From: Micropterix aruncella
Lineage: Eukaryota; Arthropoda; Insecta; Lepidoptera; Micropterigidae
Length of the DNA: 64,000 nucleotides
Assembly: GCA_944548615.1 (NCBI GenBank)
Contig: CALYMY010000064.1
Span: 1 to 64,000 of the forward strand
Direction of reading: 5' to 3'
Shown here: one piece after another, positions 1 through 64,000 of the stretch
Layout: every line of letters begins with the position of its first letter
Position numbering within the stretch: position 1 is the stretch's first letter
Notes under the pieces: model-generated
Told to the model about the DNA's origin: nothing
Seen by the model: the letters and a program-made list of their open reading frames with translations, nothing else
Database searches by the model: none
Made by a program: the position numbers and the translations under genes

Positions 1-3000
1 ATACATACACACTTACCGTCGTACATACATACACACTTACCGTCGTACGTACATACACACTTACCGTCGTACATACATACACACTTACCGTCGTACATAC
101 ATACACACTTACCGTCGTACATACATACACACTTACCGTCGTACATACATACACACTTACCGTCGTACATACATACACACTTACCGTCGTATACATACAC
201 ACTTACCGTCGTACATACATACACACTTACCGTCGTACATACATACACACTTACCGTCGTACATACATACACACTTACCGTCGTACATACATACACACTT
301 ACCGTCGTACATACATACACACTTACCGTCGTACAGTACATACACACTTACCGTCGTACATACATACACACTTACCGTCGTACATACATACACACTTACC
401 GTCGTACATACATACACACTTACCGTCGTACATACATACACACTTACCGTCGTACATACATACACACTTACCGTCGTACATACATACACACTTACCGTCG
501 TACATACATACACACTTACCGTCGTACATACATACACACTTACCGTCGTACATACATACACACTTACCGTCGTACATACATACACACTTACCGTCGTACA
601 TACATACACACTTACCGTCGTACATACATACACACTTACCGTCGTACATACATACACACTTACCGTCGTACATACATACACACTTACCGTCGTACATACA
701 TACACACTTACCGTCGTACATACATACACACTTACCGTCGTACATACATACACACTTACCGTCGTACATACATACACACTTACCGTCGTACATACATACA
801 CACTTACCGTCGTACATACATACACACTTACCGTCGTACATACATACACACTTACCGTCGTACATACATACACACTTACCGTCGTACATACATACACACT
901 TACCGTCGTACATACATACACACTTACCGTCGTACATACATACACACTTACCGTCGTACATACATACACACTTACCGTCGTACATACATACACACTTACC
1001 GTCGTACATACATACACACTTACCGTCGTACATACATACACACTTACCGTCGTACATACATACACACTTACCGTCGTACATACATACACACTTACCGTCG
1101 TACATACATACACACTTACCGTCGTACATACATACACACTTACCGTCGTACATACATACACACTTACCGTCGTACATACATACACACTTACCGTCGTACA
1201 TACATACACACTTACCGTCGTACATACATACACACTTACCGTCGTACATACATACACACTTACCGTCGTACATACATACACACTTACCGTCGTACATACA
1301 TACACACTTACCGTCGTACATACATACACACTTACCGTCGTACATACATACACACTTACCGTCGTACATACATACACACTTACCGTCGTACATACATACA
1401 CACTTACCGTCGTACATACATACACACTTACCGTCGTACATACATACACACTTACCGTCGTACATACATACACACTTACCGTCGTACATACATACACACT
1501 TACCGTCGTACATACATACACACTTACCGTCGTACATACATACACACTTACCGTCGTACATACATACACACTTACCGTCGTACATACATACACACTTACC
1601 GTCGTACATACATACACACTTACCGTCGTACATACATACACACTTACCGTCGTACATACATACACACTTACCGTCGTACATACATACACACTTACCGTCG
1701 TACATACATACACACTTACCGTCGTACATACATACACACTTACCGTCGTACATACATACACACTTACCGTCGTACATACATACACACTTACCGTCGTACA
1801 TACATACACACTTACCGTCGTACATACATACACACTTACCGTCGTACATACATACACACTTACCGTCGTACATACATACACACTTACCGTCGTACATACA
1901 TACACACTTACCGTCGTACATACATACACACTTACCGTCGTACATACATACACACTTACCGTCGTACATACATACACACTTACCGTCGTACATACATACA
2001 CACTTACCGTCGTACATACATACACACTTACCGTCGTACATACATACACACTTACCGTCGTACATACATACACACTTACCGTCGTACATACATACACACT
2101 TACCGTCGTACATACATACACACTTACCGTCGTACATACATACACACTTACCGTCGTACATACATACACACTTACCGTCGTACATACATACACACTTACC
2201 GTCGTACATACATACACACTTACCGTCGTACATACATACACACTTACCGTCGTACATACATACACACTTACCGTCGTACATACATACACACTTACCGTCG
2301 TACATACATACACACTTACCGTCGTACATACATACACACTTACCGTCGTACATACATACACACTTACCGTCGTACATACATACACACTTACCGTCGTACA
2401 TACATACACACTTACCGTCGTACATACATACACACTTACCGTCGTACATACATACACACTTACCGTCGTACATACATACACACTTACCGTCGTACATACA
2501 TACACACTTACCGTCGTACATACATACACACTTACCGTCGTACATACATACACACTTACCGTCGTACATACATACACACTTACCGTCGTACATACATACA
2601 CACTTACCGTCGTACATACAGTACACACTTACCGTCGTACATACGTACACACTTACCGTCGTACATACGTACACACTTACCGTCGTACATACGTACACAC
2701 TTACCGTCGTACATACGTACACACTTACCGTCGTACATACGTACACACTTACCGTCGTACATACGTACACACTTACCGTCGTACATACGTACACACTTAC
2801 CGTCGTACATACGTACACACTTACCGTCGTACATACGTACACACTTACCGTCGTACATACGTACACACTTACCGTCGTACATACGTACACACTTACCGTC
2901 GTACATACGTACACACTTACCGTCGTACATACGTACACACTTACCGTCGTACATACGTACACACTTACCGTCGTACATACGTACACACTTACCGTCGTAC

Positions 3001-3929
3001 ATACGTACACACTTACCGTCGTACATACGTACACACTTACCGTCGTACATACGTACACACTTACCGTCGTACATACGTACACACTTACCGTCGTACATAC
3101 GTACACACTTACCGTCGTACATACGTACATACTTACCGTCGTACATACGTACACACTTACCGTCGTACATACGTACACACTAACCGTCGTACATACGTAC
3201 ACACTTACCGTCGTACATACGTACACACTTACCGTCGTACATACGTACACACTTACCGTCGTACATACGTACACACTTACCGTCGTACATACGTACACAC
3301 TTACCGTCGTACATACGTACACACTTACCGTCGTACATACGTACACACTTACCGTCGTACATACGTACACACTTACCGTCGTACATACGTACACACTTAC
3401 CGTCGTACATACGTACACACTTACCGTCGTACATACGTACACACTTACCGTCGTACATACGTACACACTTACCGTCGTACATACGTACACACTTACCGTC
3501 GTACATACGTACACACTTACCGTCGTACATACGTACACACTTACCGTCGTACATACGTATACACTTACCGTCGTACATACGTACACACTTACCGTCGTAC
3601 ATACGTACACACTTACCGTCGTACATACGTACACACTTACCGTCGTACATACGTACACACTTACCGTCGTACATACGTACACACTTACCGTCGTACATAC
3701 ATACACACTTACCGTCGTACGTACATACACACTTACCGTCGTACATACATACACACTTACCGTCGTACGTACATACACACTTACCGTCGTACATACATAC
3801 ACACTTACCGTCCTACATACATACGCACTTACCGTCCTACATACATACACACTTACCGTCCTACATACATACACACTTACCGTCCTACATACATACACAC
3901 TTACCGTCCTACATACATACACACTTACC
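1..3929. repeat. 24-bp satellite array, segment 1
   Basis: Tandem 24-bp units made of an ACAY-type tract (ACATACATACACAC) followed by TTACCGTCGT; the sequence repeats exactly every 120 bases, which is five units. Sub-blocks are visible. Positions 1-340 are mixed, with phase-shifting units near 187 and 331. About 341-2610 is essentially invariant standard unit. A 25-base switch unit (CATACAGTACACAC) lies near 2614-2627. About 2638-3700 carries CATACGTACACAC instead of CATACATACACAC. About 3700-3810 alternates GTCGTACGTACAT with standard units. About 3811-3929 has GTCC instead of GTCG. It ends at the LINE insertion, after the bases CACTTACC. No credible gene lies inside; the long open frames follow from the unit length being divisible by three. 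Confidence 0.98.
3916..3929. repeat. Left target-site duplication of LINE copy 1
   Basis: The 14 bases CATACACACTTACC end exactly where the LINE sequence begins and are repeated at 5889-5902 directly after its poly(A) tail. The preceding base is A and cannot be separated from the tail, so the duplication is 14 or 15 bp. R1-type elements are known for target-site duplications of about this length. Confidence 0.8.
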
Positions 3930-3930
3930 A

Positions 3931-5649
3931 AACATTGCATTAAAGGAAGCCATCAAAGCAGCACCGTCACTGTTCTTGGAAGTTTACAACGCATGCCTTA
4001 AGGAGGGAACTGTACCTCTGAAATGGAAGCAACAGAGATTAGTACTTCTCCCTAAGGGTAAGCAACCACCAGATGATCCATCAGCCTACCGTCCGCTCTG
4101 CATGTTGGATACGGCAGGCAAAATACTAGAAAGTATAATTCATAGGAGGATAGAAGCGATAGTAGACCCGCAGCTTTCAAGCAACCAATATGGCTTCCGG
4201 AAGGGTCGCTCCACCCTGGATGCGATTGACCTTGTCGTCAACACAGCCAAAGAAGCGATCGCAGGGACCAGATGGAAGAGAGGTACGAAGAATTACTGCC
4301 TGGTGGCAACGCTGGATATAAAGAATGCGTTTAACTCCGCCAACTGGGACTGCATTATGAGTTCTCTCACCGCAATGAATGTACCAGGATATCTACGAAG
4401 GATGGTAGCAAGCTACTTCACTGATAGGGTCCTGAAATACGACACTGAGACGGGCCCGAAAGAATACAGGGTCACAGGGGGGGTGCCTCAGGGCTCGGTT
4501 CTGGGCCCACTTCTATGGAATGTCATGTACGACGGGCTACTGAGACTAGTACTACCAAGGGAAGTCAAACTCACGGCATATGCAGATGACGTGGCTCTGG
4601 TGATCGTCGCAAAACATCTCGAAGAGATAAATCTGGCTTTTGATACCACCTTTGAGATAATCAGTCAGTGGATGGACACAGTTGGCCTGAAGCTGGCAGA
4701 ACACAAGACTGAGGCAGTTCTCATTACCAGTAGGAAACAGCTAGAAACCATCACACTACGAGTTGGAGCCCATGAAATCACATCTCAGCCGTTTATTCGC
4801 TACTTAGGAGTGATGATCGATGCCCGACTCAATTTCAAGCAGCAGGCAGAGCATGTGGGTGCGAAAGCATCGGTGGTCAGAGCGGCCTTATCGCGATTGA
4901 TGCCCAACATAGGCGGCCCAAAGCAGACTAGAAGGTCACTCCTATCGTCAGTGGTCACGTCAGTGCTCACATATGGCATCTCCATATGGGGTGATACCCT
5001 TAGAATACAGGAGTCACGGAGAAAAGTCGCGCCAGTATATCGATTGAGTGCTCTGAGAGTAGCCAGCGCCTTCCGCACAGTATCTGAGGACGCAGTGTGC
5101 GTTATCTCTGGGATGCTGCCTATTGAAATACTCGCTGAAGAGCGAAAAGCCCTCTACCGGCGAAAAGGATCAAACACTAGGAGCCCCGAAGAACTGAAAA
5201 CTGAAGAACGGCGGAAAAGCATACGCCGATGGCAAACTATGTGGGACACCTCAGCAAATGGTAGGTGGACGCACCGTCTTATTCCGGAAGTAGATGTCTG
5301 GCTGAGCCGAGAGTATGGAGAGGTGAATTACTACCTGACCCAGATGATATCGGGGCACGGGTGCTTCCGAGAATACCTCTTCAAATTCAAACACGATACT
5401 TCTCCAGAGTGCCCGTCTTGTCCTGGAGCCAATGAAGATGCTGAGCACGTGTTCTTCATGTGCCCCCGTTTCGAATCATCACGCAGTACTTGGGAAACTG
5501 CTCTTACACAGAAAATCCGGCCGGAATCCTTAATGAGAGCAATGCTTTCGTCAAAGGATGCCTGGGAGACGACAAACTCATTCGTGACGGAAGTACTGCA
5601 AGAACTTCGTCGCCTAGAAAGAGACCGAGCTCAGAACCAGGAGCACTAA
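3931..5649 (+). CDS. LINE ORF2 C-terminal part: reverse transcriptase with CCHC motif (5'-truncated)
   Basis: An open frame of 572 residues runs from the first whole codon of the insertion to TAA at 5647-5649; there is no native start, because the N-terminal endonuclease half is missing. In R1-clade elements this protein nicks the target and primes reverse transcription from the nick. Numbered from 3931, the RT fingers/palm run from about residue 30. QYGFRKGRST is at 86-95, catalytic motif A (LDIKNAF) has Asp129, GVPQGSVLGPLLWN is at 184-197, and the YADD box has Asp219 and Asp220 (codons at 4585-4590). A C-terminal zinc motif C494-x2-C497-x8-H506-x4-C511 matches the C-terminal motif of R1-type ORF2. 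No stop or frameshift is present, so the copy is young, but without an endonuclease or promoter it should be immobile. Confidence 0.92.
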   Translation, partial: NIALKEAIKAAPSLFLEVYNACLKEGTVPLKWKQQRLVLLPKGKQPPDDPSAYRPLCMLDTAGKILESIIHRRIEAIVDPQLSSNQYGFRKGRSTLDAIDLVVNTAKEAIAGTRWKRGTKNYCLVATLDIKNAFNSANWDCIMSSLTAMNVPGYLRRMVASYFTDRVLKYDTETGPKEYRVTGGVPQGSVLGPLLWNVMYDGLLRLVLPREVKLTAYADDVALVIVAKHLEEINLAFDTTFEIISQWMDTVGLKLAEHKTEAVLITSRKQLETITLRVGAHEITSQPFIRYLGVMIDARLNFKQQAEHVGAKASVVRAALSRLMPNIGGPKQTRRSLLSSVVTSVLTYGISIWGDTLRIQESRRKVAPVYRLSALRVASAFRTVSEDAVCVISGMLPIEILAEERKALYRRKGSNTRSPEELKTEERRKSIRRWQTMWDTSANGRWTHRLIPEVDVWLSREYGEVNYYLTQMISGHGCFREYLFKFKHDTSPECPSCPGANEDAEHVFFMCPRFESSRSTWETALTQKIRPESLMRAMLSSKDAWETTNSFVTEVLQELRRLERDRAQNQEH

Positions 5650-5888
5650 ATAAAAGAAAGAGTGACTTGAACCGCCAGAAGAAGCAATAGCAAGACCCTC
5701 CCTCCGCGAAGTAATGCCTAACGGCGGGGCCGCGGAGGAAACAGAGGCAGAGACCAGAGGATGAGGTTTTTAGTCGGTAGGGGAAATAATCCGAGTCCGA
5801 CATACCCAGGCAGAATACTGTCCTGATGATACGTAAAAGTATTTTTCTCCAAACCTCTGAAAAAAAAAAAAAAAAAAAAAAAAAAAAA
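5650..5888 (+). other. LINE 3' UTR with hairpin and poly(A) tract, copy 1
   Basis: After the ORF2 stop come 210 bp of non-coding sequence and then an A-tract at 5860-5888 (29 A). A short stem is visible: GTCGG at 5773-5777 pairs with CCGAC at 5797-5801, preceded by GAGGTTTTTA. A GTTTTTAGT...GAGTCC arrangement near the 3' end is, to my knowledge, common in R1-clade 3' UTRs, where the ORF2 protein recognises its RNA; that role here is inferred. Confidence 0.75.
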
Positions 5889-8800
5889 CATACACACTTA
5901 CCGTCCTACATACATACACACTTACCGTCCTACATACATACACACTTACCGTCCTACATACATACACACTTACCGTCCTACATACATACGCACTTACCGT
6001 CCTACATACATACGCACTTACCGTCCTACATACATACGCACTTACCGTCCTACATACATACACACTTACCGTCCTACATACATACGCACTTACCGTCCTA
6101 CATACATACCCACTTACCGTCCTACATACATACACTTACCGTCCTACATACATACACACTTACCGTCCTACATACATACGCACTTACCGTCCTACATATA
6201 TACACACTTACCGTCCTACATACATACACACTTACCGTCCTACATACATACACACTTACCGTCCTACATACATACACACTTACCGTCCTACATACATACA
6301 CACTTACCGTCCTACATACATACACACTTACCGTCCTACATACATACACACTTACCGTCCTACATACATACACACTTACCGTCCTACATACATACACTTA
6401 CCGTCCTACATACATACACACTTACCGTCCTACATACATACGCACTTACCGTCCTACATATATACACACTTACCGTCCTACATACATACACACTTACCGT
6501 CGTACATACATACACACTTACCGTCGTACATACATACACACTTACCGTCGTACATACATACACACTTACCGTCGTACATACATACACACTTACCGTCGTA
6601 CATACATACACACTTACCGTCGTACATACATACACACTTACCGTCGTACATACATACACACTTACCGTCGTACATACATACACACTTACCGTCGTACATA
6701 CATACACACTTACCGTCGTACATACATACACACTTACCGTCGTACGTACATACACACTTACCGTCGTACATACATACACACTTACCGTCGTACGTACATA
6801 CACACTTACCGTCGTACATACATACACACTTACCGTCGTACGTACATACACACTTACCGTCGTACATACATACACAATTACCGTCGTACGTACATACACA
6901 CTTACCGTCGTACATACATACACACTTACCGTCGTACATACATACACACTTACCGTCGTACATACATACACACTTACCGTCGTACATACATACACACTTA
7001 CCGTCGTACATACATACACACTTACCGTCGTACATACATACACACTTACCGTCGTACATACATACACACTTACCGTCGTACATACATACACACTTACCGT
7101 CGTACATACATACACACTTACCGTCGTACATACATACACACTTACCGTCGTACATACATACACACTTACCGTCGTACATACATACACACTAACCGTCGTA
7201 CATACATACACACTTACCGTCGTACATACATACACACTTACCGTCGTACATACATACACACTTACCGTCGTACATACATACACACTTACCGTCGTACATA
7301 CATACACACTTACCGTCGTACATACATACACACTTACCGTCGTACATACATACACACTTACCGTCGTACATACATACACACTTACCGTCACACATACATA
7401 CACACTTACCGTCGTACATACATACACACTTACCGTCGTACATACATACACACTTACCGTCGTACATACATACACACTTACCGTCGTACATACATACACA
7501 CTTACCGTCGTACATACATACACACTTACCGTCGTACATACATACACACTTACCGTCGTACATACATACACACTTACCGTCGTACATACATACACACTTA
7601 CCGTCGTACATACATACACACTTACCGTCGTACATACATACACACTTACCGTCCTACATACATACACACTTACCGTCCTACATACATACGCACTTACCGT
7701 CCTACATACATACGCACTTACCGTCCTACATACATACGCACTTACCGTCCTACATACATACACATTTACCGTCCTACATACATACGCACTTACCGTCCTA
7801 CATACATACCCACTTACCGTCCTACATACATACACTTACCGTCCTACATACATACACACTTACCGTCCTACATACATACGCACTTACCGTCCTACATATA
7901 TACACACTTACCGTCCTACATACATACACACTTACCGTCCTACATACATACACACTTACCGTCCTACATACATACACACTTACCGTCCTACATACATACA
8001 CACTTACCGTCCTACATACATACACACTTACCGTCCTACATACATACACACTTACCGTCCTACATACATACATACTTACCGTCCTACATACATACACACT
8101 TACCGTCCTACATACATACACACTTACCGTCCTACATACATACACACTTACCGTCCTACATACATACACACTTACCGTCCTACATACATACACACTTACC
8201 GTCCTACATACATACACATTTACCGTCCTACATACATACACACTTACCGTCCTACATACATACACACTTACCGTCCTACATACATACACACTTACCGTCC
8301 TACATACATACACACTTACCGTCCTACATACATACACACTTACCGTCCTACATACATACACACTTACCGTCCTACATACATACACACTTACCGTCCTACA
8401 TACATACACACTTACCGTCCTACATACATACACACTTACCGTCCTACATACATACACACTTACCGTCCTACATACATACACACTTACCGTCCTACATACA
8501 TACACACTTACCGTCCTACATACATACACACTTACCGTCCTACATACATACACACTTACCGTCCTACATACATACACACTTACCGTCCTACATACATACA
8601 CACTTACCGTCCTACATACATACACACTTACCGTCCTACTTACATACACACTTACCGTCCTACATACACACACACTTACCGTCCTACATACATACACACT
8701 TACCGTCCTACATACACACACACTTACCGTCCTACATACATACACACTTACCGTCCTACATACATACACACTTACCGTCCTACATACATACACACTTACC

Positions 8801-11647
8801 GTCCTACATACATACACACTTACCGTCCTACATACATACACACTTACCGTCCTACACACATACACACTTACCGTCCTACATACATACACACTTACCGTCC
8901 TACATACATACACACTTACCGTCCTACATACATACACACTTACCGTCCTACATACATACACACTTACCGTCCTACATACATACACACTTACCGTCCTACA
9001 TACATACACACTTACCGTCCTACATACATACACACTTACCGTCCTACATACATACACACTTACCGTCCTACATACATACACACTTACCGTCCTACATACA
9101 TACACACTTACCGTCCTACATACATACACACTTACCGTCCTACATACATACACACTTACCGTCCTACATACATACACACTTACCGTCCTACATACATACA
9201 CACTTACCGTCGTACGTACATACACACTTACCGTCGTACATACATACACACTTACCGTCGTACGTACATACACACTTACCGTCGTACATACATACACACT
9301 TACCGTCGTACATACATACACACTTACCGTCGTACATACATACACACTTACCGTCGTACATACATACACACTTACCGTCGTACATACATACACACTTACC
9401 GTCGTACATACATACACACTTACCGTCGTACATACATACACACTTACCGTCGTACATACATACACACTTACCGTCGTACATACATACACACTTACCGTCG
9501 TACATACATACACACTTACCGTCGTACATACATACACACTTACCGTCGTACATACATACACACTTACCGTCGTACATACATACACACTTACCGTCGTACA
9601 TACATACACACTTACCGTCGTACATACATACACACTTACCGTCGTACATACATACACACTTACCGTCGTACATACATACACACTTACCGTCGTACATACA
9701 TACACACTTACCGTCGTACATACATACACACTTACCGTCGTACATACATACACACTTACCGTCGTACATACATACACACTTACCGTCGTACATACATACA
9801 CACTTACCGTCGTACATACATACACACTTACCGTCGTACATACATACACACTTACCGTCGTACATACATACACACTTACCGTCGTACATACATACACACT
9901 TACCGTCGTACATACATACACACTTACCGTCGTACATACATACACACTTACCGTCGTACATACATACACACTTACCGTCGTACATACATACACACTTACC
10001 GTCGTACATACATACACACTTACCGTCGTACATACATACACACTTACCGTCGTACATACATACACACTTACCGTCCTACATACATACACACTTACCGTCG
10101 TACATACATACACACTTACCGTCCTACATACATACACACTTACCGTCCTACATACATACACACTTACCGTCCTACATACATACACACTTACCGTCGTACA
10201 TACATACACACTTACCATCCTACATACATACACACTTACCGTCCTACATACATACACACTTACCGTCGTACATACATACACACTTACCGTCGTACATACA
10301 TACACACTTACCGTCGTACATACATACACACTTACCGTCGTACATACATACACACTTACCGTCGTACATACATACACACTTACCGTCGTACATACATACA
10401 CACTTACCGTCGTACATACATACACACTTACCGTCGTACATACATACACACTTACCGTCATACATACATACACACTTACCGTCGTACATACATACACACT
10501 TACCGTCGTACATACATACACACTTACCGTCGTACATACATACACACTTACCGTCGTACATACATACACACTTACCGTCGTACATACATACACACTTACC
10601 GTCGTACATACATACACGCTTACCGTCGTACATACATACACACTTACCGTCGTACATACATACACGCTTACCGTCGTACATACATACACACTGACCGTCG
10701 TACATACATACACGCTTACCGTCGTACATACATACACACTTACCGTCGTACATACATACACACTTACCGTCGTACATACATACACACTTACCGTCGTACA
10801 TACATACACACTTACCGTCGTACATACATACACACTTACCGTCGTACATACATACACACTTACCGTCGTACATACATACACACTTACCGTCGTACATACA
10901 TACACACTTACCGTCGTACATACATACACACTTACCGTCGTACATACATACACACTTACCGTCGTACATACATACACACTTACCGTCGTACATACATACA
11001 CACTTACCGTCGTACATACATACACACTTACCGTCGTACATACATACACACTTACCGTCGTACATACATACACACTTACCGTCGTACATACATACACACT
11101 TACCGTCGTACATACATACACACTTACCGTCGTACATACATACACACTTACCGTCGTACATACATACACACTTACCGTCGTACATACATACACACTTACC
11201 GTCGTACGTACATACACACTTACCGTCGTACATACATACACACTTACCGTCGTACATACATACACACTTACCGTCGTACATACATACACACTTACCGTCG
11301 TACATACATACACACTTACCGTCGTACATACATACACGCTTACCGTCGTACATACATACACACTTACCGTCATACATACATACACACTTACCGTCGTACA
11401 TACATACACACTTACCGTCGTACATACATACACACTTACCGTCGTACATACATACACACTTACCGTCGTACATACATACACACTTACCGTCGTACATACA
11501 TACACACTTACCGTCGTACATACATACACGCTTACCGTCGTACATACATACACACTTACCGTCGTACATACATACACGCTTACCGTCGTACATACATACA
11601 CACTGACCGTCGTACATACATACACGCTTACCGTCGTACATACATAC
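5889..11647. repeat. 24-bp satellite array, segment 2
   Basis: It resumes with the right copy of the LINE target duplication (5889-5902). From 5889 to about 6485 the units are GTCC type with sporadic CGCACTT, CCCACTT and TATATACACAC variants, and 22-base units end near 6138 and 6400 (spacing 262). About 6486-7645 is GTCG type, with GTACGTACAT at every second unit between 6745 and 6890. About 7646-9190 is GTCC type, 9191-10065 GTCG type, 10066-10260 mixed, and 10261-11647 GTCG type with CACGCTT and CACTGACC variants. A 912-bp (38-unit) internal duplication is marked by GTCATAC at 10460 and 11372 and by CACGCTT at 10618 and 11530. It ends in ATAC, the target-site duplication of the LTR element. 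Confidence 0.97.
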
Positions 11648-13127
11648 TGTAATGGTCATAAAACCATTACGGGTTTAACAAACAATATAATAAACAATTA
11701 TTGCCAAAATTAGTTAACAAAAATAAAATAACAATAATATAGGATACAAGCGAATTTTATCGCACAATAGGCATCACTAGCGATTAGATGGAACACGGGT
11801 GTAGAGAATCGCTAGTGAGAGTAGTTTTTTTTTTTGGCCCGAAGCACTCGAGGGGAAAGGTCGTCGTTTCAGCGCGGCGGTCGGTTTTTTGCCTCGCGGC
11901 GATTACCGGCCGCCGGAGCTCATTTCACGACTTCGAAGTGGCCTACCTACATCTACGAATAAAATATAAAAGTCAAAGTCATCTTTAGAAATTATAACTA
12001 GAATCAAGTGCGGCGCAGGCAAAGCATTCCAGCGTGATCTCCACATCCTATTTGGGGCAAGTAGATTATATTCTCATTTTCGGTTTTTTTTTAAAGTAAA
12101 ATTCGATTTCTTTTATTCTAACTTGCAATACCACAATCGTGCAATACTTTTTAGTCCTTCAGACCCGTCTTGCACGACATATACGTGCTAACCCGTTTTT
12201 CTGAATATAGGAATCCGTAGTTTCTAATATAGGATCAACGATAGACACCGCCAATAAATCTAAAATCATTTCGGCGATCTCTACTTAAAATGTAGGCTGT
12301 AAAAATATATAAATATAATTAAAATCCACGTTAGACAATCTTGGGATTAAAACGTGGCGAAGTCAGAGTGGCATTGAGTTCTTCCCGAGGCAATTAAAAA
12401 TCAGATAAATTAATAAAATAGCTTATGAAGTAAAATACCAAATTATAGATAAATATAAATGCAAGTCATCGTCAGGGAATACGTAACATTTCCAAATTTA
12501 AATATCAGGGAAAATGATAGAGCAAAAGACTACCGTCGTTTACGATAGTTGAAAGTGCAGCGTACCCGACACTAAAATTGCCAAATCATTGTAGGGCAAA
12601 AATAGGAAAAACCAGTTACGAATAATGCTCATCGAAACACGGGTAAAATGTAATAATTGTAACGTACGCTCGTAAAAATCTCGCAAGGCCTTCGACGATC
12701 GACGTATTAAAATTAAGTTTCATAAATAATATAAATATTCAATATCACACATATAGTTTCGGGAAATGTCTTCGCAACAGGTTATAGAAAAATAAATAGT
12801 AAATTTGGGTCGAAAAGGTATCTTTTATTTTACTCATAATCATCTCAATATCAGAATAATTTCAATTTTAATATCATCATATATCATATATTTCATTTTC
12901 ATTTTTTTATATAAATAAAATAGACTAAAAAAAACCATAAAAGGAAAGGATTGGTTGAGATATATTTATAAAATATTAAAATCAGTTTCCAGTATTATTT
13001 GGGAAAATTCATTAAATTCAGAATTCTTTATTAAGGAAAATAAAGCACACTTATTTATGTTACAAGTTAATTTTGCGCATATTCCAGCAAGATTTAAGTT
13101 AAATTAACCGAATCCGCCGTCGCGTCC

Positions 13128-13230
13128 GCGCCATCTAGCGGCGAAACGCGGGCATTAGTAGCACAATGCAGGTTGAGCAAAATGATGTCCATCTTTGCTA
13201 AGTAACTCGCCGCGCCACCGCTAGAGGGCG
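13128..13230. promoter_or_regulatory. Pair of CTCF-like motifs in the left LTR
   Basis: CCGCTAGATGGCGC reads on the minus strand at 13128-13141, and CCGCTAGAGGGCG on the plus strand at 13218-13230. Both resemble the CTCF core consensus (CC-NCTAG-RKGGCGC-like), and they point away from each other. The same pair is at 22290-22303 and 22380-22392 in the right LTR. Binding is inferred from the motif only. Confidence 0.4.
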
Positions 13231-13519
13231 TTCGAACGAGAATAATAATATATTATTTAGTAAGGGAAATGGTTCAATAATTTAGCAATTCAATATCCAT
13301 AAAAGGCCGTTCATCCCATAGGGATGGTCATCTTACCGTAGACTGGGTCACTAAGGGATTCTAAATACCCCCGTGCCTGAGATGGACTGAGCGAACCGAC
13401 GCAAATCCCGACGCAGCCTACATACCCCTGCCCCAGAAGAATTCTAAACGGTGGAAGGACTCTGGCACTTGTTCATAGATCCGAAATAAATCTACTTCTC
13501 CTTCCGGGCTGGCGCCCAC

Positions 13520-13526
13520 TATATAA
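13520..13526 (+). promoter_or_regulatory. Candidate TATA box of the left LTR
   Basis: TATATAA in the context CCACTATATAAACAAATC lies about 100 bp before the LTR end and would place transcription start near 13550, leaving a short R-U5. It is repeated at 22682-22688. An AATAAA at 13485-13490 lies just upstream, which is an awkward order for a polyadenylation signal, so U3/R/U5 boundaries stay uncertain. Confidence 0.45.
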
Positions 13527-13629
13527 ACAAATCTCTCCATATCGTCCGGAAGTATATTGGTAAAATAATAATATTGTAATCTATAAAATTAACTGATATA
13601 TTAAAAATTATTCGGGTCTCATGACAAAT

Positions 13630-13648
13630 TGGCGCCCAAAGTGGGTCT
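13630..13648 (+). other. Primer-binding site, lysine-tRNA type
   Basis: TGGCGCCCAAAGTGGGTC starts 3 bases after the left LTR. It closely matches the complement of the 3' end of a tRNA-Lys (TGGCGCCCAACGTGGGGC in the known Lys1,2-type primer sites), with two mismatches visible. Its position fixes the element's plus orientation. Confidence 0.75.
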
Positions 13649-13675
13649 ATTTTCTTTTCAAACTTTCAAACAAAT

Positions 13676-13916
13676 TGGCGAGCCAACGGGGGCTAATTTT
13701 TTTTTCAAACATTCCAAACAGTATTCTTTTTCAAAACAATTTTATCTTCTGTTTGACTAAATGACCAAGTTGGACGCATGACAAAATTGGCTTCCAACTT
13801 GGGGCTTATAGATCTTTTCATAATAATTTTTTTACAAACAATTTTTTTCAAAATAATTTATCTTTTGATTTAAAGCGATCACGCTGGTCGCCTACAAATT
13901 GGGCCCAACGCGGTGC
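13676..13916 (+). repeat. Three further degenerate copies of the primer-binding site
   Basis: Sequences resembling the primer site recur at 13676 (TGGCGAGCCAACGGGGGC), 13788 (TGGCTTCCAACTTGGGGC) and 13900 (TGGGCCCAACGCGGTGC), each preceded by ACAAA-type sequence and followed by T-rich sequence. The copy at 13788 is preceded by CATGACA, the last bases of the LTR. Between copies there is only T/A-rich filler. Confidence 0.6.
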
Positions 13917-15121
13917 AAAATTTTCTTTCCATAACTGTCAAACAAAATTTTTTTCAAACTAATACATACAATTTATTATTTAATTTTTTTTTCATATCAA
14001 CTATTTTTTACTACAACAATATTTCCCGCCCTCCCACCCTTTCTTTCTTATATATCGCAACTTTTCAAAATATTAATATATTACTGTTGCGAAACTATTA
14101 TTAAATATTTATTATTATTTTTATACAGGCAACGAACTTGGTACTAATTAATTTTTTAAAATATAAATTAAACACAACACACACGTACACGTTTACACAC
14201 CGGCACGCCCTTAAAAACACTTTAAAATTTTAATAAAATTTTCATAAAATATTTATAAATACAATTTTCATATAACATCTCTAATATATGATTCAGTTTT
14301 AGCTTCTATAAACGAAAGATAAACATTGCGTCAACTATAATAATAGCAAAAATTTCTCTGTTCTTATATAAAATTGCAAGCACTTATACATTGACATGGA
14401 ATACCTAGCGTCGCAAGTGAATCATAAGGAACTCTAACAAATGTGAAAACTAGAAATACGTACGAACACTACTGTGTGCGTCGAACAGTACATGGGCTTT
14501 AGGCACTTAGGAAAATTACGATTACAGGAAGTTTAATATATCTGATAGTGACAAAATAAGTAAATGAATGAGAAACAAAACACTGCAAACAAAAACGTAA
14601 AGAAAGGAATAAACTTTAGGAAAAACGAAACAAACAAATCTTGAAGAATAATAATATTAAATTATGGTAACAAGGAACTACACTTAGAGGTGCACACGAA
14701 TACAGGGTGTCAAAAAAATAATACACGCAGTAAAATTTAAAACGTACCTAACCTCATGCAAATTTAAATAACATATAATAACTTAGAATCAACACTTAGA
14801 AATATACCCTGATGTACAGGGTGGTTCAAAAAAAAAAATTTTTTTTCTTTTTAATAAATTTTAATTTTGTTTTTTTTTTCTCTTTAACTTGTATTTCTTT
14901 CATGTGAATCATCTTCTAGCTTTAACACTTAAATATGTACTAATAATTTTCAGCATTCACCTTACACACTTGAAATTTTTAAATTGTATCTAACACACGA
15001 CTTCACACTGTTCAACTATAACAAGATTTGAATTTAATTTCTTTTTTTCTTCTCAAAACACTTACACACATAAATTTGGTAAGTGGTTGACACATTGAGC
15101 ATATCGGGAAGCAATCGCAAA
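13917..15121 (+). other. AT-rich 5' leader of the LTR element, no gene seen
   Basis: About 1.2 kb of very AT-rich sequence between the primer-site repeats and gag. A 63-codon open frame at 13913-14104 is a low-complexity F/Y/I/N-rich product of the base composition. Homopolymer A/T runs occur near 14828-14880. Nothing else recognisable. Confidence 0.6.
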
Positions 15122-15652
15122 ATGGCACCCAGGAAAACAAAAACGGCAGCTAGATCACGACGTCAACAGTCACCGGAAAATATACGCGAGGAAACCAATA
15201 TGAAAAACAAAATTTCGGAACAACGGGGAAAACAAGACTTTGAAAATCCAACTCACGGTAATATATCAAGACTGGAAGAATCGATTCATTACGAAAAAAC
15301 GAATAATTCGAGGATCTACGCCACTTCGGAAATAAACAGCGAAGATGAGGATTTATATACCAGGAAAAACAGCAACAAAACGCCAGATGCAGCAGCGGAA
15401 TCGGGAATCTTCCAAACCTCGAACAGTGGAAAGCACAAGATTACACCCAGCTTATACAAATGGAATTTGAAGTTTGATGGCAGCACACCTGTCTTGGACT
15501 TCATCGACGCGATAGAGGACAAAGTTCAATCAAGGGGAGTTTGCTGTACATTTTGGCATTTTCAAAACCCTGAGAAAGTTACAAACATATTATTATTGGC
15601 CCGGAATGCAAAAGGAAGTCAAGGCACATGTCAAAAATTGCGATACTTGTAA
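15122..15652 (+). pseudogene. Truncated gag of the LTR element
   Basis: An open frame from ATG at 15122 (MAPRKTKTAARSRRQQ); upstream in-frame codons to 15083 offer only a GTG, unlikely as a eukaryotic start. The first 100 residues are hydrophilic, rich in basic and acidic residues, as in the N-terminal part of many gypsy gag proteins. About residues 105-135 (YKWNLKFDGSTPVLDFIDAI) resemble the start of a Ty3/gypsy capsid-type domain. After about residue 135 (near 15520-15535) the frame runs into sequence that encodes integrase in another frame, so the last 40 or so residues are out-of-frame nonsense ending at TAG 15650-15652. Normally gag would continue through capsid and zinc knuckle; these are deleted. 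Moderate confidence in the gag assignment. Confidence 0.65.
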
Positions 15653-16577
15653 AGCATACAAGATAAAGACAGGACCTGCACATGGGCTCATGGTGACTCC
15701 AAAAACAGTGAACACTCCAATGCATACGATCAGTATAGATCTGGTGGGACCCATGCCAAGATCACTGAGCGGCTTCACCTATATACTCTCTGTGATCGAT
15801 TTATTTACAAAATTTTGTTGGCTATTCCCGTTAAGAAAAGCCACCTCAGCCAATATTATCAAACACCTAGAAAATAACGTATTTCTGGCGTACGGAACAC
15901 CTGCGGTAATAACGTTAGACAACGCATCATATTTTAGGTCAAAAGCATTCAAAAATTTTACGGAAAAATATAAAATCCCAAAATTATTCTATGGATGCGT
16001 ATATGCTCCTCAATCGAACGCAGTCGAACGTTATAATCAAACTATAGAAACGAGTTTATCAATTCTAGCAGGAAAAGATCAAAGATCGTGGGATAAACAT
16101 TTATCTTTAATCCAAAACGCGTTAAATAATCATCAAAATCTGGCAACAGGCTTTACCCCATCATACCTTATGTACGCTCGTGAACCAATGGTTGATGGCC
16201 GCTACCATAAAATGTTTAGTTTCATTCCAAAAGAAAAATCCAAAATAGCAATAGACAGTCCACAGGAATTCGCAAAAGGACTCGAGACGCTCGCGGACGC
16301 ATATGACGTCGTGCGGGAAAGACTCATGGAAGCTTTCAAAAATAACGCCTCAAAATATAACCTGAGGAGAAAGCACGTCGAATTCTCAGTCGGTGATTTC
16401 GTATGGGCGAAAAATCACATGCAATCGCGAAAAGCAGAGTTTTTCTCAAACAAACTAGCGCCCAGATATTCAAAATGCAAAATCATCGCGAAAAAGTCCC
16501 CCATAGCCTATGTATTGGTTGACGAACACGGCAAAAATCGTGGGACGTACCACATAAAAGACCTGTGTAAAAATTAG
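15516..16577 (+). pseudogene. Integrase of the LTR element, detached from pol by deletion
   Basis: The frame is open from 15516 to TAG 16575-16577; its first ATG is 15606. It encodes retroviral-type integrase, which inserts the cDNA copy into chromosomes. Upstream of the ATG the frame reads the end of the HHCC zinc domain: a His codon at 15549, YYWPGM ending at the ATG, then C-x2-C (NCDTC). The expected first His is not visible, so the deletion junction probably falls at or just before it. Numbered from 15606, the catalytic triad is Asp45 (SIDLVGP), Asp105 (ITLDNAS) and Glu141 (NAVERYN); the D,D-35-E spacing is intact. A C-terminal SVGDFVW...LAPRYSKCKII segment matches the GPY/F-like module of Ty3/gypsy integrases. 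It overlaps the gag frame by 137 bp in a different phase, so translation would need reinitiation or frameshifting. No chromodomain seen. Confidence 0.88.
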
Positions 16578-18965
16578 GGTCACACAAAAAATACGCAGAA
16601 CATTTCACATTGCAAATAACATTCGCATAATATCCACATGTAATCCGGAATATGCAAAATCACAAAAAGCAACGACTATATTGGGTACACCGTGAGATAG
16701 TTGCAAGTGAAAAGTAAAAGAAAAAATATAAAAACAGAACAAAATACAAAATATTAAGTAAATAAATGTAACAGATAAAGTATATAAGTATTCGATACAA
16801 GTATTCAAGGCTAAAAAAAAAAAATAATAATCACACATAAAGAAAAAGTAACAGACACATAAGGGCGTAGCATGATAAAAATAAAAACACATACAACACT
16901 AAATTTTCAATAAGTAAAATAAATAAATATATAATTTCACATACACTAGATAACATCATCAAAAAAAATTTTTTTATTAAAAAAAAAAATTTTTTTTCTT
17001 AACATCTTATCCGGCTAAGAACCCGGATTGTCTAAAAAAAAATAGGGAGAAAGAATAGTACCAAGTTTCGCGTCAAAATATATTTATATAAAATATCATA
17101 TATATGTATATATTTAACATATAATATAGTAAAAAGGAGCCATGCGGATAAGTCTAAGGATTGAGATACTTCTATACCTATCATTTTATACTATATATTT
17201 GCATATAAGCAAAATCTGAAGGGTTCGGTGATCTAACCCTGCTCATGGAGTAAAAACACCTGGGTGCTTAATACCCGTCTATTGTAAACATCACCTGACA
17301 TGTAGAATTAAAATTTACTTTGATCAGCTCTGAAGGATACAAATTATTTTATATTATTATATATTAAATAGAGTATACCGGACGTTAAGCCGTTCGCGTT
17401 CAAATTAAAATTGTTCACGGACAGGTCCTAAAATTCATTTATGAATAAACTCTACTATTATTATTTATTTTTTTTACTATTATGTAATTACGTGGCGAAA
17501 CTGCTGACATTTCTAATTAGCGACTAGAATGTTCACGATAAAAAAACCATTGTATATTACAACATATAGCTACAGAAAGATCTCATCCGATCCTGAATTT
17601 ATCAGGACATGGAATATTTTTTCCATACCATGAATTGTTTTTATTGTCTTTTTTCTTCAAAAAAGACTTATAGATTTTCCGTTATGTCCCGCTGAAACGC
17701 TGCTCAAAATTAGTTTGTCCATAAACGCTCATAGTTAGTAGCGAATTAATCTTAGCTGAACACGTAATTTCTGATTAAATGTACAATACTGTAGAGAAGA
17801 ATCATTTTGTACTGTCAAGAATTGGTAAAAATAATAAATACAAGGCAACCACTTTTAGTATGAAAGATTGTATGTTAGGAAGACTTAGCATGTAGATGTA
17901 AGCACGTAGAATGAACAAGTCGCGAAAGAGAAAAACTTAAGCTAAATATTGAAAATTTTATCATTCACACTCAAGACAACAATAATAACATCTCAGTAAA
18001 ATATATGTTCAACACAAACATTAAATTCGGAAGGCTTAAAAACCTGATAAGTTAAATAAATTCTTGCCGAACAAGGTATATAAGATTTACTATTAACTTA
18101 CTACTACTAGAGTAAATTACGTAGTTAATATGCGCTTTAGATCGCAGAACAGTCACCATATATAGTATCATAAAAATTTTTTAAAAAATCTAAAGATTTC
18201 CCATATTTTTCTATTAAATTAAAGACTATAGTGTCCACGCTTCCGCATGAATTAAAATTATGTGGATCGACGTCTATTATTGTTTCAACAGAGACTGGTC
18301 ACCAATATATAGTTCATTTCTATACAACAAAAACTTATAAATATTTTTAAAAGGGAAATCTCATATATATATATATATCTTATATTTCACTCGGGGAGAC
18401 CAATACCACTGAGACGGTGAACAATCTATTATATGAAAAATTATCAATGTCATTGGAACCCTCACCATGACATATTATTAACAAAAATACTTGGTGTAAA
18501 TTATATAAATAATTTTTTTAATAAATTAAATATAAAATTGCGAGATACTGTCCACGTCTCACAACACATAAATTCCATATAATTATACACTCTTCAATTT
18601 TTCCATACTCTTAAAAAGATATCACGCTAGAAATCGGCCCATAATTTATTAAGCCAGCCACACATATAAATAAAGATCGACGTTGAGACATAATTTACTT
18701 TGTAACATTTGATTTTGTAGTAATTAAGATAAGCTCTCACAAGAAGTGGAGCGTTATCAAAATGTTTATTTTTCTTTTACTTAAATATTGAAATACGAAA
18801 AACCTCAACACTTGTTTGAAGAAGAAAATCTGAAAAATCGGAAGGTGTATCCATACGAACACCTAATAAAATATAGTCTTAAATTTAGTTACTGGAAGCT
18901 TATTTGAAAAGCAATGTGGGAGAATTTTTGTTTAAAAAAAAAAGTAAAATAAAAATGTTCTTTTA
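16578..18965. other. AT-rich internal region of the LTR element, no gene seen
   Basis: About 2.4 kb with stops in all frames, poly-A/T runs near 16970-17005 and an (AT)n stretch near 18363-18380. I recognise no envelope gene or RNA gene. It may be a decayed or captured segment. Confidence 0.6.
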
Positions 18966-18969
18966 TTAA

Positions 18970-19275: not shown

Positions 19276-19424
19276 TTAAATAGTAAGAATAGATGTAGTA
19301 GTTTAAAAATTTCTGTAATTTGTAAAGAAAACGCAGAAGCACGTCTCTTTTGTTCCGTCAAAAATTTTTGAAATAAAAATAAAGTTGTATACGAGAATAT
19401 GCCCTTCCTGTCAAACCCTTCCTA

Positions 19425-27958: not shown

Positions 27959-27959
27959 A

Positions 27960-29678
27960 AACATTGCATTAAAGGAAGCCATCAAAGCAGCACCGTCACT
28001 GTTCTTGGAAGTTTACAACGCATGCCTTAAGGAGGGAACTGTACCTCTGAAATGGAAGCAACAGAGATTAGTACTTCTCCCTAAGGGTAAGCAACCACCA
28101 GATGATCCATCAGCCTACCGTCCGCTCTGCATGTTGGATACGGCAGGCAAAATACTAGAAAGTATAATTCATAGGAGGATAGAAGCGATAGTAGACCCGC
28201 AGCTTTCAAGCAACCAATATGGCTTCCGGAAGGGTCGCTCCACCCTGGATGCGATTGACCTTGTCGTCAACACAGCCAAAGAAGCGATCGCAGGGACCAG
28301 ATGGAAGAGAGGTACGAAGAATTACTGCCTGGTGGCAACGCTGGATATAAAGAATGCGTTTAACTCCGCCAACTGGGACTGCATTATGAGTTCTCTCACC
28401 GCAATGAATGTACCAGGATATCTACGAAGGATGGTAGCAAGCTACTTCACTGATAGGGTCCTGAAATACGACACTGAGACGGGCCCGAAAGAATACAGGG
28501 TCACAGGGGGGGTGCCTCAGGGCTCGGTTCTGGGCCCACTTCTATGGAATGTCATGTACGACGGGCTACTGAGACTAGTACTACCAAGGGAAGTCAAACT
28601 CACGGCATATGCAGATGACGTGGCTCTGGTGATCGTCGCAAAACATCTCGAAGAGATAAATCTGGCTTTTGATACCACCTTTGAGATAATCAGTCAGTGG
28701 ATGGACACAGTTGGCCTGAAGCTGGCAGAACACAAGACTGAGGCAGTTCTCATTACCAGTAGGAAACAGCTAGAAACCATCACACTACGAGTTGGAGCCC
28801 ATGAAATCACATCTCAGCCGTTTATTCGCTACTTAGGAGTGATGATCGATGCCCGACTCAATTTCAAGCAGCAGGCAGAGCATGTGGGTGCGAAAGCATC
28901 GGTGGTCAGAGCGGCCTTATCGCGATTGATGCCCAACATAGGCGGCCCAAAGCAGACTAGAAGGTCACTCCTATCGTCAGTGGTCACGTCAGTGCTCACA
29001 TATGGCATCTCCATATGGGGTGATACCCTTAGAATACAGGAGTCACGGAGAAAAGTCGCGCCAGTATATCGATTGAGTGCTCTGAGAGTAGCCAGCGCCT
29101 TCCGCACAGTATCTGAGGACGCAGTGTGCGTTATCTCTGGGATGCTGCCTATTGAAATACTCGCTGAAGAGCGAAAAGCCCTCTACCGGCGAAAAGGATC
29201 AAACACTAGGAGCCCCGAAGAACTGAAAACTGAAGAACGGCGGAAAAGCATACGCCGATGGCAAACTATGTGGGACACCTCAGCAAATGGTAGGTGGACG
29301 CACCGTCTTATTCCGGAAGTAGATGTCTGGCTGAGCCGAGAGTATGGAGAGGTGAATTACTACCTGACCCAGATGATATCGGGGCACGGGTGCTTCCGAG
29401 AATACCTCTTCAAATTCAAACACGATACTTCTCCAGAGTGCCCGTCTTGTCCTGGAGCCAATGAAGATGCTGAGCACGTGTTCTTCATGTGCCCCCGTTT
29501 CGAATCATCACGCAGTACTTGGGAAACTGCTCTTACACAGAAAATCCGGCCGGAATCCTTAATGAGAGCAATGCTTTCGTCAAAGGATGCCTGGGAGACG
29601 ACAAACTCATTCGTGACGGAAGTACTGCAAGAACTTCGTCGCCTAGAAAGAGACCGAGCTCAGAACCAGGAGCACTAA
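27960..29678 (+). CDS. LINE ORF2 C-terminal part: reverse transcriptase with CCHC motif, copy 2 (5'-truncated)
   Basis: It encodes the same 572-residue partial protein as the first LINE copy, with the YADD box at codons 28605-28619 and stop TAA at 29676-29678. No disabling change separates the copies, so the duplication is recent. The endonuclease domain and start codon are missing here too, as the element was truncated on insertion. Confidence 0.92.
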   Translation, partial: NIALKEAIKAAPSLFLEVYNACLKEGTVPLKWKQQRLVLLPKGKQPPDDPSAYRPLCMLDTAGKILESIIHRRIEAIVDPQLSSNQYGFRKGRSTLDAIDLVVNTAKEAIAGTRWKRGTKNYCLVATLDIKNAFNSANWDCIMSSLTAMNVPGYLRRMVASYFTDRVLKYDTETGPKEYRVTGGVPQGSVLGPLLWNVMYDGLLRLVLPREVKLTAYADDVALVIVAKHLEEINLAFDTTFEIISQWMDTVGLKLAEHKTEAVLITSRKQLETITLRVGAHEITSQPFIRYLGVMIDARLNFKQQAEHVGAKASVVRAALSRLMPNIGGPKQTRRSLLSSVVTSVLTYGISIWGDTLRIQESRRKVAPVYRLSALRVASAFRTVSEDAVCVISGMLPIEILAEERKALYRRKGSNTRSPEELKTEERRKSIRRWQTMWDTSANGRWTHRLIPEVDVWLSREYGEVNYYLTQMISGHGCFREYLFKFKHDTSPECPSCPGANEDAEHVFFMCPRFESSRSTWETALTQKIRPESLMRAMLSSKDAWETTNSFVTEVLQELRRLERDRAQNQEH

Positions 29679-29888
29679 ATAAAAGAAAGAGTGACTTGAA
29701 CCGCCAGAAGAAGCAATAGCAAGACCCTCCCTCCGCGAAGTAATGCCTAACGGCGGGGCCGCGGAGGAAACAGAGGCAGAGACCAGAGGATGAGGTTTTT
29801 AGTCGGTAGGGGAAATAATCCGAGTCCGACATACCCAGGCAGAATACTGTCCTGATGATACGTAAAAGTATTTTTCTCCAAACCTCTG

Positions 29889-29918
<30 letters not shown>
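29679..29918 (+). other. LINE 3' UTR with hairpin and poly(A) tract, copy 2
   Basis: 210 bp of 3' UTR with the GTCGG/CCGAC stem at 29802-29806 and 29826-29830, then 30 A (29889-29918), one more than in copy 1. Confidence 0.75.
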
Positions 29919-29919
<1 letters not shown>

Positions 29920-62500: not shown

Positions 62501-63277
62501 ACACTTACCGTCGTACATACATACACACTTACCGTCGTACATACATACACACTTACCGTCGTACATACATACACTTTTACCGTCGTACATACATACACAC
62601 TTACCGTCGTACATACATACACACTTACCGTCGTACATACATACACACTTACCGTCGTACATACATACACACTTACCGTCGTACATACATACACACTTAC
62701 CGTCGTACATACATACACACTTACCGTCGTACATACATACACACTTACCGTCGTACATACATACACACTTACCGTCGTACATACATACACACTTACCGTC
62801 GTACATACATACACACTTACCGTCGTACATACATACACACTTACCGTCGTACATACATACACACTTACCGTCGTACATACATACACACTTACCGTCGTAC
62901 ATACATACACACTTACCGTCGTACATACATACACACTTACCGTCGTACATACATACACACTTACCGTCGTACATACATACACACTTACCGTCGTACATAC
63001 ATACACACTTACCGTCGTACATACATACACACTTACCGTCGTACATACATACACACTTACCGTCGTACATACATACACACTTACCGTCGTACATACATAC
63101 ACACTTACCGTCGTACATACATACACACTTACCGTCGTACATACATACACACTTATCGTCGTACATACATACACACTTACCGTCGTACATACATACACAC
63201 TTACCGTCGTACATACATACACACTTACCGTCGTACATACATACACACTTACCGTCGTACATACATACACACTTACC
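50543..63277. repeat. 24-bp satellite array, segment 8
   Basis: 12.7 kb of satellite. From 50543 to about 54838 it is GTCG/CATACAT type, very uniform, with groups of alternating GTACGTACAT units near 50875-51070 and 53105-53255. Two 25-base switch units (CATACAGTACACAC) lie near 54838 and 54864. About 54886-62440 is CATACGTACACAC type. About 62445-63277 is standard type again. It ends in CACTTACC at the next LINE. No gene. Confidence 0.98.
54886..62440. repeat. Nearly invariant ACGT-variant sub-array
   Basis: About 315 consecutive units share CATACGTACACAC. The only departures I see are one 22-base unit near 57385-57394 and CACAATTACC near 62264. The adjoining 24-mers on both sides are CATACATACACAC type, so the variant has been amplified as a block. 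Confidence 0.9.
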
Positions 63278-64000
63278 CCACAGGCAGAGGTGATACTGCT
63301 ACGTGGCGCGTCCCCGGGTGGCGGATAGGGGAATGCCCGCTGTTTGCGTAGTGCGACGGAGGGTAGGAGTGAAATAAAATAGCTCCCGCGGACCTAAACA
63401 CCCCAAGCCAAGGAGGTGAGACATCGTGCCGAGGGCTGGATGGTACTAGGGTTATGGTGCCGCAAGCGATTCCCCTGGGGCACCTGGTCCAACCCCGGGT
63501 GTATTTAAGTGGCCTTACTCCTGGAGAGCTATCGTAAAGGGAGCGGACCTTTTAGTTCGGGCGTACTCGTGGGAACCAAAATTGAAGAAAACAAATTAAA
63601 TACTCTGAAGATCGGGCAGCACGCCCAACAAGCAGCGCTTGATGCAAGCGCGGGGATGAAAAAGATGGAAGCATGGGATCGGCTGGAAAAGCTGATAACT
63701 GGGCTTTACGATTTTGCTAATCCTAAGCCAAACGTCCATAAGGAGATTAAGTCGAAGGTGGTGGCCATTGGCAACGCCTTCAGACGACTCAAGGAGATGG
63801 AGGCAGTTAAGCCGAGGTTAACTCAGCCCCAGCCGAGTCTCATACCGCCGATTATGCAGACGCCACCGACACCGTTGCGCACTCGGACCTATTCCGAGAC
63901 GACGGCTAAAGATACGGAAGCAGAAGAAGGCGAGGAAATGTTGACGCCAAATTCCCGGGACCTAGTTACAGGGAAAAGGCGGAAGCGCACCTCACCTGAG
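63278..64000 (+). mobile_element. 5' end of an R1-clade retrotransposon, probably full length
   Basis: Satellite stops after CACTTACC and a GC-richer sequence starts (CCACAGGCAGAGG...), continuing to the window edge. The join falls at the same base of the 24-mer as the LINE at 3930. About 230-380 bp without a long frame look like a 5' UTR; the phrase GGGTGGCGGATAGGGGAATG is of a type I associate with R1-clade 5' ends. An ORF1-like frame follows. The exact start is ambiguous by one or two C residues. Membership in the same family as the truncated LINE is inferred from the shared site, since the two fragments do not overlap. Confidence 0.75.
63509..64000 (+). CDS. R1-clade ORF1 (gag-like) N-terminal part, runs off the window
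   Basis: The frame is open from 63509 (after TAA 63506-63508) to the end of the window; the first in-frame ATG is 63656. Sequence upstream of it (from about 63570, GTKIEENKLNTLKIGQHAQQ) already looks protein-like, so translation may start at a non-AUG codon or upstream in another way. The visible product is hydrophilic: a probable helical, Lys/Glu-rich segment (EIKSKVVAIGNAFRRLKEME, codons near 63746-63805), then a Pro/Thr-rich stretch (about 63830-63895), an acidic patch and a basic GKRRKR segment near the edge, which could serve in nuclear targeting. In R1-clade elements ORF1 is an RNA-binding protein forming the ribonucleoprotein; its three C-terminal CCHC knuckles would lie beyond this window. 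Assigned by position and general resemblance. Confidence 0.6.
   Translation, partial: MALLLESYRKGSGPFSSGVLVGTKIEENKLNTLKIGQHAQQAALDASAGMKKMEAWDRLEKLITGLYDFANPKPNVHKEIKSKVVAIGNAFRRLKEMEAVKPRLTQPQPSLIPPIMQTPPTPLRTRTYSETTAKDTEAEEGEEMLTPNSRDLVTGKRRKRTSPE

What the first reader, a model, noticed from the sequence alone, without database searches (positions are those of the whole stretch)
3916..5902. Retrotransposon that targets the satellite: Waldo-like LINE in an ACAY tract with a 14-bp target duplication
Seen: the LINE is bounded by a 14-bp direct repeat CATACACACTTACC on both sides, in phase with the 24-mer. Known: R1-clade elements are site-specific; R1 makes target duplications of about 14 bp, and Waldo elements insert into (ACAY)n. 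Inference: this 24-bp satellite is a dedicated landing pad for a Waldo-like element.
Basis: partly seen in the sequence, partly recalled or inferred. Interest (0 to 1): 0.75.

Follow-up and report, generated by a model that had tools for sequence, protein, structure and literature searches.

The report
R1-type jumping gene in insect satellite
A truncated R1-type retrotransposon sits at one exact position of a 24-base repeat in what looks like an insect genome, and the start of a second such element sits at the same position and orientation, which suggests that the repeat is a preferred insertion site; this is a new example of a known kind of behaviour.

Summary
LINE A (3930-5888) is flanked by an exact 14-bp direct repeat, CATACACACTTACC (3916-3929 and 5889-5902), in phase with the 24-bp satellite. 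In a tandem array, though, a 14-bp duplication cannot be told from a 10-bp deletion, and both junctions are ambiguous by a base or two. A 14-bp duplication is the ancestral R1 value in print (PMC2718515, passages).

LINE A is a 5'-truncated reverse-transcriptase fragment with an open frame and a C-terminal CCHC motif. A second copy (27959-29918) shares its flanks: one insertion duplicated with the array, not independent support.

The window ends in the 5' end of a different LINE (63278-64000), whose ORF1 matches two LINE-type ORF1 proteins. It is joined at the same base of the repeat, in the same orientation. Two independent events favour site preference, but two is few.

R1-clade membership is likely. 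Waldo affinity could not be tested. 'Dedicated landing pad' is unproven, because the genome search did not complete (13 tries).

The parts
3916..3929 (+). left copy of the 14-bp direct repeat CATACACACTTACC (end of satellite; unit index 19 would be next)
3930..5888 (+). LINE A: 5'-truncated R1-type LINE with poly(A) tail 5860-5888
3931..5649 (+). ORF2 remainder, 572 codons and stop, RVT_1 domain, YADD motif, C-terminal CX2CX8HX4C motif
5889..5902 (+). right copy of the 14-bp direct repeat
27959..29918 (+). LINE B: duplicate of LINE A together with its satellite flanks; differs by one A in the tail
63264..63277 (+). satellite end CATACACACTTACC before element C; same unit index (19) as left of LINE A
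63278..64000 (+). element C: 5' end of another LINE, cut by the window end; open ORF1 frame 63509-64000, first ATG of that frame at 63656
1..3929 (+). 24-bp satellite array ACATACATACACACTTACCGTCST (left of LINE A)
5889..11647 (+). 24-bp satellite array (right of LINE A); further arrays at 22789-23270, about 24972-27958, 29919-36081, about 37783-40734, about 42436-48841 and about 50543-63277

Best explanation
LINE A and element C are two independent insertions of R1-clade non-LTR retrotransposons that use the 24-bp satellite as a preferred target. Inferred mechanism: the element's APE-type endonuclease nicks the bottom strand in the ACATACATACAC part of the unit (top-strand coordinate ACATA|CATACAC, one base uncertain); the freed 3' end primes reverse transcription on the poly(A) tail; the top strand is cut about 14 bp downstream, after CACTTACC; second-strand synthesis from there gives the 14-15 bp duplication. 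In LINE A reverse transcription stopped inside the RT gene (5' truncation, joined at a CC that satellite and element probably share); in element C it reached the region ahead of ORF1. Later the array, LINE A included, was duplicated. Shown: junctions, phase, orientation, truncation, the duplicated block, protein relationship. Inferred: endonuclease specificity, order of steps, duplication rather than deletion, and that element C is of the same clade. Whether the endonuclease reads the satellite as such or only a short motif in it is left to the first rival.
For: Exact 14-bp repeat in phase. Element C is joined at the same unit index 19 and in the same orientation; its satellite flank is a different variant from LINE A's (GTCG against GTCC in the nearest units) and its sequence does not match LINE A, so the events are independent; if insertions fell at random in phase and strand, the second would agree 1 time in 48, more often if joins may slide by a few bases (inference). 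ORF1 of element C matches 2 of 1075 candidates at E <= 0.01, with 6.6e-20 and 4.4e-17; both relatives show C-terminal zinc-knuckle-like motifs, with Pfam scores below cut-off. RT: 2974 proteins at E <= 1e-10 among 7957 scored candidates, best 83% identity. A full-length relative's endonuclease matches TRAS1 EN (49.8 bits) and R1Bm EN (21.4 bits). Ancestral-type R1 insertions, full-length and 5'-truncated, have 14-bp duplications, with microhomologies of 1-5 nt in part of them (PMC2718515, passages).
Against: Only two independent events and only one complete set of junctions. The 3' junction of element C, which would show the first nick, lies outside the window. Element C and LINE A do not overlap in sequence, so that they are one family, or even one clade, is not shown; ORF1 searched alone found nothing. 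The satellite fills about 41 of the 64 kb (sum of the stretches), so an element landing in this window will often land in it. Duplication length is ambiguous modulo 24. Two LTR-type insertions also lie in the same arrays, at other phases, so the arrays accept other insertions too.
Confidence: 0.65

Rival explanations
1. The endonuclease recognises a short simple motif (ACAY tracts, or TACATACACAC) anywhere, as recalled for Waldo; the satellite is hit only because each unit holds one such tract and the arrays are long.
For: Each unit holds ACATACATACACAC and the 3' junction of LINE A lies inside it. R1-clade members with microsatellite targets are in print (Mino in AC repeats, PMC3124438, passage).
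Against: The tract offers several registers 4 bp apart, yet both 5' junctions fall at one index, and the inferred top-strand cut lies outside the tract; with two events this is weak. No copy outside the satellite could be examined.
Confidence: 0.35
2. No target specificity: ordinary LINE insertions in a very abundant satellite, with the shared phase a coincidence.
For: Satellite makes up about two thirds of the window (sum of the stretches), and two LTR-type sequences also insert in it, at other phases (indices 10 and 8).
Against: Same phase and orientation in two independent events (1 in 48 if random, inference), a stagger equal to the printed R1 value, and likely membership in a clade known for target specificity.
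Confidence: 0.15
3. The direct repeat is not a duplication but the trace of a 9-10 bp target deletion, or of recombination between satellite units.
For: Both fit the same junctions because the target is a 24-bp tandem array; deletions of 9 bp are printed for melanogaster-group R1 (PMC2718515, passages).
Against: The printed precise 9-bp deletions are of full-length copies, while LINE A is truncated, and the paper calls similar-length (14-bp) duplications the case in most other arthropods.
Confidence: 0.15

Closest known systems
R1 elements of arthropods (28S rDNA; Drosophila R1 junctions, PMC2718515, passages)
   Same: RT relatives that carry automatic names R1 or R1DM, 14-bp stagger, 5'-truncated copies with the same duplication and microhomologies of a few bases
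   Different: target here is a 24-bp satellite, not 28S rDNA; a relative's endonuclease matches R1Bm EN only weakly (21.4 bits)
TRAS and SART (R1 clade, telomeric repeats of insects)
   Same: insertion into a short tandem array; a relative's endonuclease matches TRAS1 EN best in the PDB (49.8 bits)
   Different: target is not TTAGG-like: the window holds 17 and 15 TTAGG on the two strands and no TTAGGTTAGG on either; chromosomal place of the array unknown
Waldo and Mino (R1 clade; Waldo in ACAY repeats is recalled, Mino in AC repeats is in PMC3124438)
   Same: satellite unit holds an ACAT-ACAT-ACAC tract and the 3' junction falls in it
   Different: no Waldo or Mino sequence could be compared; the target is a complex 24-bp unit rather than a pure microsatellite

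Membership tests
R1 clade of non-LTR retrotransposons | ORF2 with reverse transcriptase of LINE type | tested here: met
   RVT_1 E 5.7e-38; YADD; 2974 of 7957 scored candidates at E <= 1e-10
R1 clade of non-LTR retrotransposons | APE-type endonuclease upstream of RT | tested here: inconclusive
   missing from LINE A (truncated); present in full-length relatives P0001 and P0011 (Exo_endo_phos_2); that of P0001 matches TRAS1 and R1Bm EN
R1 clade of non-LTR retrotransposons | C-terminal CCHC motif in ORF2, no RNase H | tested here: met
   CX2CX8HX4C present; Pfam at E <= 0.001 shows RVT_1 and a zf-RVT match below its cut-off, nothing else
R1 clade of non-LTR retrotransposons | separate ORF1 with zinc knuckles | tested here: inconclusive
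   element C has an ORF1 start; its relatives P0122 and P0123 have C-terminal knuckle-like motifs, with Pfam scores below cut-off; the knuckle part of element C is outside the window, and LINE A has no ORF1 (truncated)
R1 clade of non-LTR retrotransposons | RT groups with named R1-clade elements in a tree with other clades | not tested
   no reference R1, TRAS, SART, Waldo or jockey RT was obtained; the tree holds LINE A and 39 of the 120 hits listed
R1 clade of non-LTR retrotransposons | target duplication of about 14 bp | tested here: inconclusive
   14-15 bp direct repeat exact, but a 9-10 bp deletion fits as well in a tandem array
Waldo | RT nearest to Waldo-A and Waldo-B | not testable with these tools
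   no Waldo sequence was found to compare; the Kojima and Fujiwara papers are not held
Waldo | insertion in ACAY repeats (recalled) | tested here: inconclusive
   one 3' junction lies in an ACAT-ACAT-ACAC tract; copies elsewhere could not be searched

The most novel reading that the evidence does not exclude
The 24-bp satellite is the chromosome-end (or subtelomeric) repeat of this insect, and these LINEs are its TRAS/SART counterparts, targeted to one register of a repeat of a length not among the insect telomere repeats that one review gives (1-11 nt, or 173-381 bp in Diptera; PMC12036569, passages). The unit is strand-biased (16 or 17 of its 24 bases are A or C on one strand), as telomere repeats are.
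Probability: 0.07. Interest if true: 0.75.

Novelty: new member of a known kind. Interest (0 to 1): 0.4.

Why it matters
R1-clade LINEs are a main model for how an endonuclease acquires a new safe target. A family fixed on one register of a complex satellite would add a target type between microsatellites and telomeric repeats, and long assemblies with tens of kilobases of such arrays make the specificity countable. With two events the case is suggestive, not settled.

Tried and rejected
Counting LINE A and LINE B as two insertions: rejected, because the flanks are shared.

Copies of the LINE or satellite in other collections: genome contigs gave 14 pattern matches and no confirmed relative, viral contigs none; the satellite pattern gave 0 matches in viral contigs and 0 in genome contigs. 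These are prokaryote and virus collections, so this says little.

Rfam on 63200-64000: two matches, both far below their gathering scores, and no known ribozyme at the 5' end of element C. A 163-residue ORF1 query alone found nothing at E <= 0.01 among 128 candidates. The satellite letters in print: 4 papers hold one of four short strings; judged by title and start of abstract, none is about a satellite (search listing only). Waldo and ACAY searches. A claim that this satellite or this pairing is unprinted would rest only in an open-access library, so it is not made.

That P0123 (ORF1) and P0011 (ORF2, 66% to LINE A) come from one element rests only on both having a longest contig of 4941 bases; used as a hint, not as evidence.

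Rows dropped: the tree used 39 of the 120 listed RT hits; P0009, a rearranged protein, was left out by hand and the others by choice of rank.

Full report
What is there. About 41 of the 64 kb (sum of the stretches) are a 24-bp satellite, ACATACATACACACTTACCGTCST, in several arrays; of 1721 pieces cut at its ACCGTC motif, 1672 are 24 bases long. The arrays are broken by a LINE at 3930-5888 (LINE A), a second LINE copy at 27959-29918 (LINE B), an LTR element at 11648-22788, a 1701-bp LTR-like sequence present four times, and a sequence that starts at 63278 and runs off the window (element C).

The observation. The 14-bp direct repeat CATACACACTTACC stands at 3916-3929 and 5889-5902 and is exact. 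In register, the left satellite stops before unit index 19 and the right resumes at index 5. Counting the last A of the tail makes the repeat 15 bp. Because the target is periodic, the same junctions would follow from loss of 9-10 bp. A motif covering the junction codon matched 60 of the 123 protein records held (120 RT hits and three ORF1 records); 58 of the 60 have proline there, so the LINE itself probably supplies CC at the join. That is a microhomology of at least 2 bases or a precise join; which one cannot be settled.

One insertion, two copies. LINE A and LINE B are identical over 1958 bases and differ by one A in the tail. Their left flanks agree over 1308 nt with 2 mismatches and their right flanks over 950 nt with 1, although satellite variants differ along the arrays. 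They are one insertion, copied with its array.

What the LINE is. The open frame 3931-5649 holds 572 codons of ORF2, starting at the edge of the RT region: RVT_1 (E 5.7e-38), YADD and a C-terminal CX2CX8HX4C motif. The protein search gave 2974 proteins at E <= 1e-10 among the 7957 candidates scored (those sharing most words), best 120 shown. The best is an unnamed protein at 83% identity; named ones in the list include Neodiprion lecontei (74%), Lasius niger (70% over 76% of the query), Eumeta japonica (69% and 65%), Bactrocera tryoni (51%) and Trichogramma (47-50%). In a tree of LINE A and 39 of these hits, LINE A pairs with P0001 (support 100/96) inside a group that also holds the sawfly and moth proteins. 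Full-length relatives have an APE-type endonuclease ahead of the RT (P0001 and P0011). In the PDB the endonuclease of P0001 finds TRAS1 EN (49.8 bits, E 2.7e-12) and R1Bm EN (21.4 bits, E 0.0013), and nothing else below E 0.1. This speaks for the R1 clade, nearer to TRAS1 than to R1Bm in that domain of that relative; a tree with reference elements could not be made. The host is probably an insect, perhaps a hymenopteran, judged only from the named hits, which also include a moth.

The second, independent insertion. Element C begins at 63278 right after ...CATACACACTTACC, that is at unit index 19, the same base of the unit as LINE A's 5' junction, and on the same strand. It does not match LINE A (blastn, E <= 1), as expected of a 5' end against a 3' part, and its flanking units are of the GTCG kind where LINE A's nearest units are GTCC. 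The frame 63512-64000, searched as part of a longer stretch, found 2 proteins at E <= 0.01 among 1075 candidates: P0122 (E 6.6e-20, 44%) and P0123 (E 4.4e-17, 47%), 452 and 543 residues long, with C-terminal knuckle-like motifs. So element C reads best as the 5' end of a LINE with an ORF1. Searched alone, the same piece found nothing. P0123 and P0011 (an ORF2 66% identical to LINE A) have the same longest-contig length, 4941 bases, a hint that this ORF1 belongs to LINE A's kin.

How it probably works. [quoted passage not shown] in the melanogaster group 75% of full-length copies have 9-bp deletions instead (PMC2718515, passages read). Applied here: bottom-strand nick opposite ACATA|CATACAC in the ACAT-ACAT-ACAC tract, reverse transcription from the tail, top-strand cut after CACTTACC. 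A truncated and an apparently 5'-complete element sharing the top-strand join is what a fixed top-strand cut predicts. If phase and strand were random, the second event would agree 1 time in 48 (inference, not corrected for looking, and weaker if joins may slide by a few bases).

Limits. Two independent events are few. Waldo could not be compared, and its ACAY target is recalled, not seen. The arrays also took LTR-type insertions at other phases, so they tolerate insertion in general.

Verdict. A real and probably site-preferring R1-type insertion in a complex satellite: a new member of a known kind.

Noticed in passing
11648-22788: LTR retroelement inserted in the satellite: two identical 1979-bp terminal repeats (11648-13626, 20810-22788), TG...CA ends, 4-bp duplication ATAC, and an integrase frame (15606-16574, rve); the only other ORF of 100 aa or more listed inside it (15083-15652) has no Pfam match, so no reverse transcriptase was seen. 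Apparently recent and internally deleted.
   Followed up: partly
23271-24971, 36082-37782, 40735-42435, 48842-50542: 1701-bp sequence with TGT...ACA ends and ACAT on both sides, like a solo LTR; four copies 100% identical, each pair sharing at least 475 nt of left and 90 nt of right satellite flank: most simply one insertion multiplied with the array.
   Followed up: partly
11647/22789 and 23270/24972: Both LTR-type insertions fall in the ACATACATAC part of the unit (next index 10 and 8), so this alternating tract may attract other integrases too.
   Followed up: no
63509-63656: In element C the ORF1 frame shows no ATG ahead of 63656, although similarity to the ORF1 relative P0122 begins upstream of it.
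   Followed up: no
2620-3690: Homogeneous block of a satellite variant with ACATACGTAC in place of ACATACATAC (393 such units in all arrays together), a sign of local amplification of single variants.
   Followed up: no
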